Shown: one piece after another, positions 17,631-18,675 of the stretch
Layout of the letters: the number at the start of each line of letters is the position of its first letter
How positions within the stretch are numbered: position 1 is the first letter of the stretch
NCBI GenBank assembly: GCA_016490735.1
Contig: JAEMWC010000099.1
Coordinates: 1,107,501-1,171,500, forward strand
DNA length: 64,000 nt
Direction: 5' to 3'
DNA from: Pachyseris speciosa
Lineage: Eukaryota > Cnidaria > Anthozoa > Scleractinia > Pachyseridae
Translations under genes and position numbers: made by a program
Notes under the pieces: generated by a model
Seen by the model: the letters and a program-made list of their open reading frames with translations, nothing else
Database searches by the model: none
Told to the model about the DNA's origin: nothing

Positions 17631-18675
17631 TAGCCTCCCACGCAGTCGTTTTTAGGGGACTCGTATTTCACCTCCTACCCACTAACGCCTGCTTTCCTGA
17701 AGCCAACATTCCTTTCCCGCCGCTTAGCCAATCACATTTTACCTACTAAATTCTGGAAGGTTGACCTTGACCTCAGGACGTTTTTCGCAAGCTTTGATCA
17801 CCGTGTGCTCTACGTTCAAAATTTCCTGTTTAAATGCATGTCAACTGACTTCATAAAAGAATTTGTGAGAGGAAATAGCGATAATATTTCCGTCAATATG
17901 CCGACTAGTTACGGAAAGACGCTTATTTCAGTATCATGCAAGCTTCGCCTTCAATCTTCGATTTCCTCGCCGCTGGTCATGTTGTAGCTGTTGTGTCACT
18001 TCTCGTGAATTTGCTGAAGGGCCAAGTCAGTTATTTAAGAAGTAATGGCGTATCTTCGGGTTAGTCTGAGTGATTTGGAAGAAGGAAATCTTTGCCATCG
18101 GTAGACCATACATGTAGCGCGCAGTGGATCGAGCGAGCTGCTAGGTAATAAGCTGCATAATTTTGCCGTCCGCATATCGTGAACTGAAGAAAAACGTAGG
18201 CGCAGTCTATGCTATCGTTGTTTGATAACTTCTGACCGCTTTCCCAGGACGTTTTGGGATCGCTGCGTGGGTGAATTTCATCTGATTTAATGCAAGACCA
18301 TGAGAGATCGAGCTTGTTGTTGTACCATGTGTGATAATTTGACGTCGGTTTACTCTATGTATGATCGACTGATAAACGCTTCAGATTTCTAACTTGGTCG
18401 CGTCTAAATTCTTATTTGTTTTAGTTTCTTGTAACACATCGTATTACTAAAAAACAAATCGGCTCCAGCGCTTTGATACGTTTACAAATTCGCAAGAGAT
18501 AGAAGCACGCATAAGGATTAATTTTACTTGTCATCGCTGGACAGATGCTCGATCGTGATTGGCTAGGATGCCCGCAAGTCAAACAATGGGAAAGGAATGT
18601 TGGCTTCGAGTAAGCAGGCGTTAGTGGGGAGGAGGTGAAATACGAGTCCCCTAAAAACGACTGCGTGGGAGGCTA
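17631..18675. mobile_element. Long-TIR Mutator-like element carrying a RecQ-like helicase fragment
   Basis: Inverted arms of ~110-120 bp lie at 17631-17740 and 18555-18675. They start TAGCCTCCCACGCAG and end CTGCGTGGGAGGCTA. Flanking 9-mers are ACACGCCTA (17622-17630) and ACACACATA (18676-18684), matching at 7 of 9 positions, as expected for an aged 9-bp target duplication. The TIR start aligns with the exact-TSD hairpins at 2699-2811 and 32578-32676. The interior includes helicase-derived sequence and no transposase, so this is a non-autonomous, gene-carrying copy. Confidence 0.75.
17805..18112 (+). pseudogene. RecQ-like helicase fragment (motifs I and Ia), frameshifted
   Basis: The first frame gives FIKEFVRGN and, at 17901-17921, PTSYGKT, a changed Walker A (family form PTGYGKS). 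After a one-base frame change around 17922-17935 the next frame gives FDFLAAGHVVAVVS, then LVNLLKGQVSYLRSNGV (17981-18060). This corresponds to the VVSPLxxLMxDQVxxLxxxG motif of RecQ-family helicases. The Gly-to-Ser change in the P-loop, the frameshift and stops (TAG near 18063) make it non-functional. The order and spacing of the two motifs fit RecQ well. It lies wholly within the TIR element. Confidence 0.72.

What the first reader, a model, noticed from the sequence alone, without database searches (positions are those of the whole stretch)
17631..18675. Long-TIR Mutator-like element carrying a RecQ-like helicase segment (Pack-MULE-like capture in an animal)
Seen: ~110-120-bp inverted arms, flanking 9-mers that match at 7 of 9, and an interior frameshifted segment with a P-loop PTSYGKT followed at RecQ spacing by HVVAVVS..LVNLLKGQVSYLRSNGV. 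Known: Mutator-like elements make 9-bp duplications and in plants often carry captured gene pieces. Inference: either capture of a host RecQ gene, or descent from an autonomous element in which a RecQ-like helicase is a normal component. Both would be unusual in an animal genome.
Basis: partly seen in the sequence, partly recalled or inferred. Interest (0 to 1): 0.78.

Follow-up and report, generated by a model that had tools for sequence, protein, structure and literature searches.

The report
Shrunken copy of helicase-carrying transposon
This stretch is a broken, shortened copy of a jumping gene whose full-size relatives in the same animal carry their own RecQ-type helicase and a probable transposase, so the helicase piece is the transposon's own gene and not a stolen host gene.

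Summary
Window 17631-18675 has 88-bp terminal inverted repeats (TIRs; 95% matched), 9-mer flanks matching at 7 of 9, and a frame-broken RecQ-like piece. It belongs to a family of about 1.08 kb; 24 of 30 fetched copies (window copy included) have perfect 9-bp target duplications. The Mutator/Pack-MULE reading does not hold. A 9,642-bp element on contig C128 has the same TIRs, a perfect 9-bp duplication, an open two-exon RecQ gene inside the left TIR and, tail to tail with it, a four-exon DUF6589 gene. The family consensus is that layout with its middle removed: left ~495 bp match the TIR plus start of the RecQ gene, right ~330 bp the start of the DUF6589 gene plus TIR. Genome-wide, 29 of 104 DUF6589 matches have a scored RecQ first exon within 10 kb, all 29 convergent (about 0.3 expected); 0 of 45 MULE matches do. 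Anatomy and duplications fit AcademH, a lineage already reported from animals and fungi; that DUF6589 is the Academ transposase I could not test. Verdict: an ordinary deletion derivative of a known kind.

The parts
17622..17630 (.). left target-site duplication ACACGCCTA (7 of 9 match the right one)
   Evidence: 24 of 30 fetched family copies have 9 of 9
17631..17718 (+). left terminal inverted repeat, 88 bp, begins TAGCCTCCCACGCAGTCG
   Evidence: the left TIR of the full-size element on C128 is 95% identical to the consensus TIR
17775..18089 (+). decayed first exon of the element's RecQ-like helicase gene, in more than one frame with stops (motif I PTSYGKT 17901-17921; HVVAVVS from 17978)
   Evidence: tblastn with the intact exon L061:3344-3868 hits 17933-18058 (70%, E 1.5e-11) and 17775-18089 (34%, E 1e-6); motif positions
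18416..18650 (-). decayed start of the element's DUF6589 (putative transposase) gene, minus strand; its first part overlaps the TIR
   Evidence: tblastn with exon L063:3423-4802(-) hits 18650-18582 (91%), 18570-18484 (50%) and 18490-18416 (64%)
18588..18675 (-). right terminal inverted repeat, 88 bp, ends CTGCGTGGGAGGCTA
   Evidence: the right end of the C128 element is 97.7% identical to the consensus TIR
18676..18684 (.). right target-site duplication ACACACATA

Best explanation
A non-autonomous, internally deleted derivative of a DNA transposon that normally carries two genes, a RecQ-family helicase (read from the left end) and a DUF6589-type putative DDE transposase (read from the right end), tail to tail between near-identical TIRs; most likely the AcademH lineage of the Academ superfamily. 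Shown: the family, its TIRs, its 9-bp duplications, a full-size element with the same ends and both genes, and the collinearity of the short family with the two ends of that element. Inferred: the deletion kept about 495 bp of the left end and about 330 bp of the right end of a close relative of the C128 element. The short copies are moved in trans by proteins of full-size copies that recognise the shared TIRs, with a 9-bp staggered cut. The helicase probably helps strand opening or repair at the ends. The window copy then aged in place (two mismatches in the duplication, 3.4% substitutions from the consensus, 36 bp shorter than it).
For: Family of about 1.08 kb with 9-bp duplications. Element C128:1110686-1120327: 9,642 bp, inverted ends 97.8% matched, ACGCGTTAT on both sides. 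RecQ exons: Pfam DEAD, Helicase_C, RecQ_Zn_bind, each above its cut-off; NCBIfam recQ_fam 144.6 bits, E 3.9e-42, for the second exon alone (below the whole-protein cut-off of 219.8); RECQ1 and WRN chains E about 1e-33 for the spliced protein. DUF6589 116 bits for joined exons, 96.9 for the last exon alone, cut-off 27. Consensus 1-495 matches element 1-490 (75%), 752-884 matches 9097-9242 (71%), 890-1081 matches 9447-9642 (85%). Of the 30 best RecQ-remnant loci, 30 have the left TIR and 26 both (the query was this family's own piece, so this is partly by construction). 29 of 104 DUF6589 matches have a scored RecQ exon within 10 kb, all convergent. A second full-size element, C831, 10,207 bp, has different flanks. 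AcademH: 9 or 10 bp duplications and a helicase (PMC10045372 passage).
Against: The C128 element is only 71-85% identical to the short family inside and beyond the TIRs, so it is a relative and not the direct parent. Consensus 496-751 was not matched to it except for a weak 31-bp stretch at 717-747. No Academ or AcademH reference sequence was compared, and Pfam lists DUF6589 as 'unknown function'. No fold of the putative transposase could be computed. 75 of 104 DUF6589 matches have no scored RecQ exon within 10 kb. Of C831 only the two ends and the RecQ first exon were seen, its flanks match at 7 of 9, and it is not among the scored DUF6589 matches (102 scored of 450 candidates).
Confidence: 0.9

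Rival explanations
1. Pack-MULE-like capture: a Mutator-like element picked up a piece of a host RecQ gene and carries it as passenger.
For: Long TIRs and perfect 9-bp duplications in most fetched copies are what MULEs make; MULE-family transposase matches do exist in this genome (45).
Against: The RecQ piece sits in the same place, order and orientation as in the full-size element with the same TIRs, and the other half matches that element's DUF6589 gene start. No MULE domain was reported for its scanned exons. 0 of 45 MULE matches lie within 10 kb of a scored RecQ exon, the nearest at 11.8 kb.
Confidence: 0.02
2. The same anatomy, but not AcademH: a separate eukaryotic transposon superfamily (ends TAG...CTA, DUF6589 transposase, tail-to-tail RecQ, 9-bp duplications).
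For: No Academ reference sequence could be compared; the AcademH paper is not held and no paper in the library holds the word DUF6589.
Against: The combination helicase plus 9-10 bp duplications in animals is what a passage of PMC10045372 and the title of Kojima 2020 describe for AcademH; a passage of PMC3627910 mentions 'RecQ Helicase in Academ'.
Confidence: 0.1
3. KolobokH-like element (Kolobok transposase with RecQ helicase).
For: KolobokH also pairs a transposase with a RecQ helicase, and one red-alga Kolobok has the RecQ on the complementary strand (PMC9587614 passages).
Against: Kolobok makes 4-bp TTAA duplications; here they are 9 bp and of varied sequence. [quoted passage not shown] here the two genes are convergent.
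Confidence: 0.01
4. Local inversion or chance inverted repeat, not a mobile unit.
For: In the window alone the 88-bp arms occur once, and the 9-mers match only at 7 of 9.
Against: 37 further places cover at least 90% of the element; among the 30 fetched copies the flanks differ apart from two pairs, with 9-bp duplications.
Confidence: 0.005

Closest known systems
AcademH (Academ superfamily DNA transposons encoding a helicase; Kojima 2020, seen here only as a cited title)
   Same: Animal host, RecQ-type helicase beside the putative transposase, 9-bp target duplications (AcademH: 9 or 10 bp, PMC10045372 passage)
   Different: The window copy lacks both genes in working form (non-autonomous). 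Sequence identity to a named AcademH family was not tested.
Mutator-like elements / Pack-MULEs
   Same: Long TIRs, 9-bp duplications
   Different: No MULE transposase found in the full-size relative; the gene piece is the element's own and not a captured host gene
KolobokH
   Same: DNA transposon that carries a RecQ helicase
   Different: TTAA 4-bp duplications, fungal, other gene order (PMC9587614 passages)
AcademX
   Same: Academ superfamily, if the classification is right
   Different: Nuclease instead of helicase and 3 or 4 bp duplications (PMC10045372 passage)

Membership tests
AcademH (Academ superfamily) | 9 or 10 bp target-site duplication | tested here: met
   9 of 9 in 24 of 30 fetched family copies and in the full-size C128 element
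AcademH (Academ superfamily) | helicase gene within the element | tested here: met
   open two-exon RecQ helicase between the TIRs of C128; 29 convergent RecQ/DUF6589 pairs among 104 DUF6589 matches. In the window copy only a decayed first exon
AcademH (Academ superfamily) | Academ DDD/E transposase | tested here: inconclusive
   DUF6589 116 bits. In an alignment of six, the DWH and EGDG motifs are invariant in 6 of 6; FDN[IF]D is in 5 of the 5 that reach it; [GA]DQ in 5 of 6. No Academ reference and no fold were available; that DUF6589 is the Academ transposase is recalled, from no call
AcademH (Academ superfamily) | terminal inverted repeats | tested here: met
   88 bp, 95% in the window copy, 97.8% in C128
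Mutator-like element (MULE) | MULE transposase (PF10551) in the autonomous partner | tested here: not met
   no such match among the scanned exons of C128; 0 of 45 PF10551 matches within 10 kb of a scored RecQ exon
Mutator-like element (MULE) | 9-bp duplication and long TIRs | tested here: met
   not diagnostic, since AcademH shares the duplication length
Pack-MULE | captured piece of a gene foreign to the element | tested here: not met
   the RecQ piece is collinear with the full-size element's own RecQ gene
KolobokH | TTAA 4-bp duplication | tested here: not met
   9-bp duplications of varied sequence; definition from PMC9587614 passages

The most novel reading that the evidence does not exclude
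The helicase is an obligatory partner of this transposase and helps set the 9-bp stagger. In this animal a diverse swarm of such two-gene elements supplies most of its RecQ-like genes, so many coral and anemone proteins named WRN-, BLM- or RecQ-like would be transposon proteins and not host repair genes.
Probability: 0.4. Interest if true: 0.5.

Novelty: new member of a known kind. Interest (0 to 1): 0.3.

Why it matters
It shows RecQ plus DUF6589 as a recurrent convergent gene pair in an animal genome (29 pairs found), seen between one set of transposon ends in the element read in full. It also warns annotators: coral proteins named 'WRN-like', 'Bloom syndrome protein homolog' or 'mediator of RNA polymerase II transcription subunit 34-like' are among the 120 best-listed relatives of this transposon helicase (of 7999 scored), so counts of expanded repair helicases there may include transposon genes.

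Tried and rejected
Pfam and PDB searches with the broken window piece alone gave nothing above threshold. A protein search with the read-through piece padded with X found 19 candidates, none significant. Two scans of viral contigs with TIR patterns found nothing. Of the ten paper searches, one search found no paper with DUF6589, none with both 'AcademH' and 'coral', and none listed the AcademH paper itself, which is not held. A profile of DUF6589 relatives found no solved structure below E 0.05. A count of TIR patterns in the genome did not complete.

Considered and rejected: MULE membership, Pack-MULE capture, KolobokH, local inversion, and a 2-bp TA duplication. I first thought of TA because the ends read TAG...CTA; the 9-bp flanks outside it decide against that.

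Results against or limiting my reading: the direct full-size parent of the 1.08-kb family was not found. Of the two fetched sets, 14 loci give no clean duplication: 2 of 30 (one nested in another TIR, one with an eroded left end) and 12 of 30 (4 without a right TIR, 8 of the 26 with both; in 7 of these 8 the TIR match does not reach the outer end, one reaches it and still matches at only 2 of 9). Four loci are places already, and three pairs in it share a flank. Upstream of 18 other RecQ exons, 4 of 18 reached no TIR match at E 1e-3 (controls 0 of 58), though three of those four hold a start TAGCCTGCG by eye. A third place with the right end, C386, showed no left end in the 0.8 kb looked at.

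Full report
What is in the window. Bases 17631-18675 are bounded by two inverted arms of 88 nt, 95% complementary, far above shuffled sequence (alignment score 156 against a best of 29 in 200 shuffles). The arms read TAGCCTCCCACG...CGTGGGAGGCTA. Immediately outside lie ACACGCCTA and ACACACATA, matching at 7 of 9. The interior holds PTSYGKT (from 17901) and, in another frame, HVVAVVS (from 17978).

It is a mobile family. A search of the window's own assembly (984 Mb, 2368 contigs) with the element scored 40 of 1140 first-look candidates. 38 places, the window copy included, cover at least 90% of the element; the other 37 are 88-91% identical to the window copy. I fetched 30 loci, the window copy being L001. 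Their flanks match at 9 of 9, 8 of 9, 7 of 9 in 1 (the window copy), and 4 and 2 of 9 in the last two. In 870 mismatched pairings only 4 reach 9 of 9; these come from L007/L011 and L009/L021, which share a duplication and are probably the same insertion on two haplotype contigs. So at most 28 of the 30 are independent insertions. The 30 copies are on average 97.8% identical to their 1081-bp consensus (range 95.6-99.3), the window copy 96.6%.

The helicase piece is broken in the family. In the consensus the RecQ-like piece is already split between frames with stops, so the short family spread as a non-coding element.

Full-size element. The read-through piece was searched against the genome (150 scored of 1184 candidates). 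Two places without stops in the matched part were fetched; C429 proved to be another short copy with TIRs. At C128 the same TIR stands before an open RecQ first exon. With the adjacent 5 kb the whole element is visible: C128:1110686-1120327, 9,642 bp, inverted ends 97.8% matched, ACGCGTTAT on both sides. The left gene has two open exons, L061:3344-3868 and 4161-5618. A GTAAGT donor and a CAG acceptor (read by eye) would join DEAH to the next helicase part. Its domains are DEAD (60.5 bits), Helicase_C (60.0) and RecQ_Zn_bind (30.3), each above its cut-off. Its spliced protein matches RECQ1 and WRN chains at E about 1e-33. The right gene, on the other strand, has four open exons that align in order to one Nematostella protein, LOC116618156 (P0001), at 49-65% identity. 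Its joined pieces match DUF6589 at 116 bits against a cut-off of 27.

The short family is that layout with the middle missing. Consensus 1-495 aligns to element 1-490 (75%), 752-884 to 9097-9242 (71%) and 890-1081 to 9447-9642 (85%); the stretch 496-751 is unmatched apart from 31 weakly matching bases. At protein level its left part matches RecQ exon 1 and its right part, on the minus strand, matches the start of the DUF6589 gene; the same holds for the window copy. Since the identity of these blocks is only 71-85%, C128 is a relative of the parent and not the parent itself.

Linkage across the genome. Of the 30 best of 150 RecQ-remnant hits, fetched as loci, 30 have the left TIR and 26 both; of the 26, 18 have 8 or 9 of 9 matching flanks. 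Four of these loci are places already fetched, three pairs share a flank, and the query was this family's own piece, so this count is not independent of the family. A search with the intact RecQ exon 1 of C128 scored 150 of 3026 candidates. By my own count of the listing 116 of the 150 have no stop inside the match, down to 37% identity; host RecQ genes may be among them. I fetched the DNA upstream of 18 of these 150: 14 of 18 have a TIR-like match at E 1e-3 or better, against 0 of 58 control flank pieces. In the 11 loci printed there the element starts at TAG[CT]CTCC, after flanks that look unrelated. Several of the 18 belong to one subfamily. A DUF6589 search gave 104 matches from 102 scored of 450 candidates. 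29 of the 104 have a scored RecQ exon within 10 kb, at gaps of 2.3-5.2 kb, and all 29 pairs are convergent; chance would give about 0.3. Some pairs are near-copies of each other, so they are not 29 independent associations. A second full-size element, C831:203185-213391 (10,207 bp), has its own flanks, CGTCCGTCC / CGTCCATTC; only its ends and RecQ first exon were seen, and it is not among the scored DUF6589 matches. For comparison, 45 MULE-family (PF10551) matches were found (150 scored of 205 candidates), none within 10 kb of a scored RecQ exon.

Elsewhere. Named DUF6589 relatives come from sea anemones and corals (Nematostella, Acropora, Actinostola, Stylophora, Montipora, Exaiptasia, Dendronephthya, Desmophyllum, 87 hits, most unnamed). 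Named RecQ relatives come from Montipora, Stylophora, Oculina, Actinostola, Porites and Paramuricea (best 120 of 7999). The host is therefore probably an anthozoan; this is an inference. Several entries of the two lists share source and longest-contig length (for example 8,675, 6,015, 5,858, 8,838 and 25,566 bases, and 594,823 for Stylophora), which suggests that both genes lie on the same contigs there. This is a coincidence of lengths and not a direct check.

What it works like and what it is. It works like a non-autonomous cut-and-paste derivative: ends recognised by proteins of full-size relatives, insertion with a 9-bp stagger. The insertion stagger is shown by the duplications; mobilisation in trans and the role of the helicase are inferred. 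As to family, a passage of PMC10045372 says that AcademH makes 9 or 10 bp duplications and AcademX 3 or 4 bp, and links this to their helicase and nuclease. A passage of PMC3627910 mentions 'RecQ Helicase in Academ'. The AcademH paper itself (Kojima 2020) is not held; I know its title only from citations. That DUF6589 is the Academ transposase is recalled and comes from no call. Conserved acidic motifs are compatible with a DDE enzyme, but no fold could be computed.

Judgement. The finding is real, and its explanation is ordinary for a specialist in transposons: a deletion derivative of a helicase-carrying element of a known kind. The mildly surprising part is the number and diversity of RecQ-bearing elements in one animal genome. 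The genome searches scored only parts of their candidate lists, so all copy counts are lower bounds.

Noticed in passing
window 2699-2811: A 113-bp fold-back miniature element with related ends (TAGCCTCC...GGAGGCTA) and a perfect 9-bp duplication ATAGCAGAA on both sides: a second, much smaller member of the same kind.
   Followed up: partly
window 48669-48869: Another decayed RecQ-like piece (AVVVSPLNALISDQIEKLKALSVG), probably of a different family; weak match to the C128 exon, E 0.009. Its ends were not sought.
   Followed up: partly
L061:1-3186: Other transposon-like open frames (611-1609, 1689-2336, +; resemblance recalled) beside the C128 element, and a 46-bp inverted repeat (2808-2853 / 3141-3186) that abuts its left end.
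   Followed up: no
window 26-718 (-): A 230-aa open frame that resembles the GIY-YIG nuclease end of Penelope-like retroelements (recalled resemblance, not searched).
   Followed up: no
window 6578-9325 (+): A 915-aa open frame with repeated TPR-like units and a CHAT-like C-terminus (recalled resemblance).
   Followed up: no
window 19937-21076 (-): A 379-aa open frame that looks like a seven-helix G-protein-coupled receptor (recalled resemblance).
   Followed up: no
window 19537-19866: Nested inverted repeats: 68-bp arms with no spacer (19634-19769) inside 80-bp arms.
   Followed up: no
genome-wide, G000: 75 of 104 DUF6589 matches have no scored RecQ exon within 10 kb, among them the 15 best-scoring ones (13 of these match nearly the whole profile in one frame): perhaps a related lineage without the helicase, or with a helicase not scored.
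   Followed up: no
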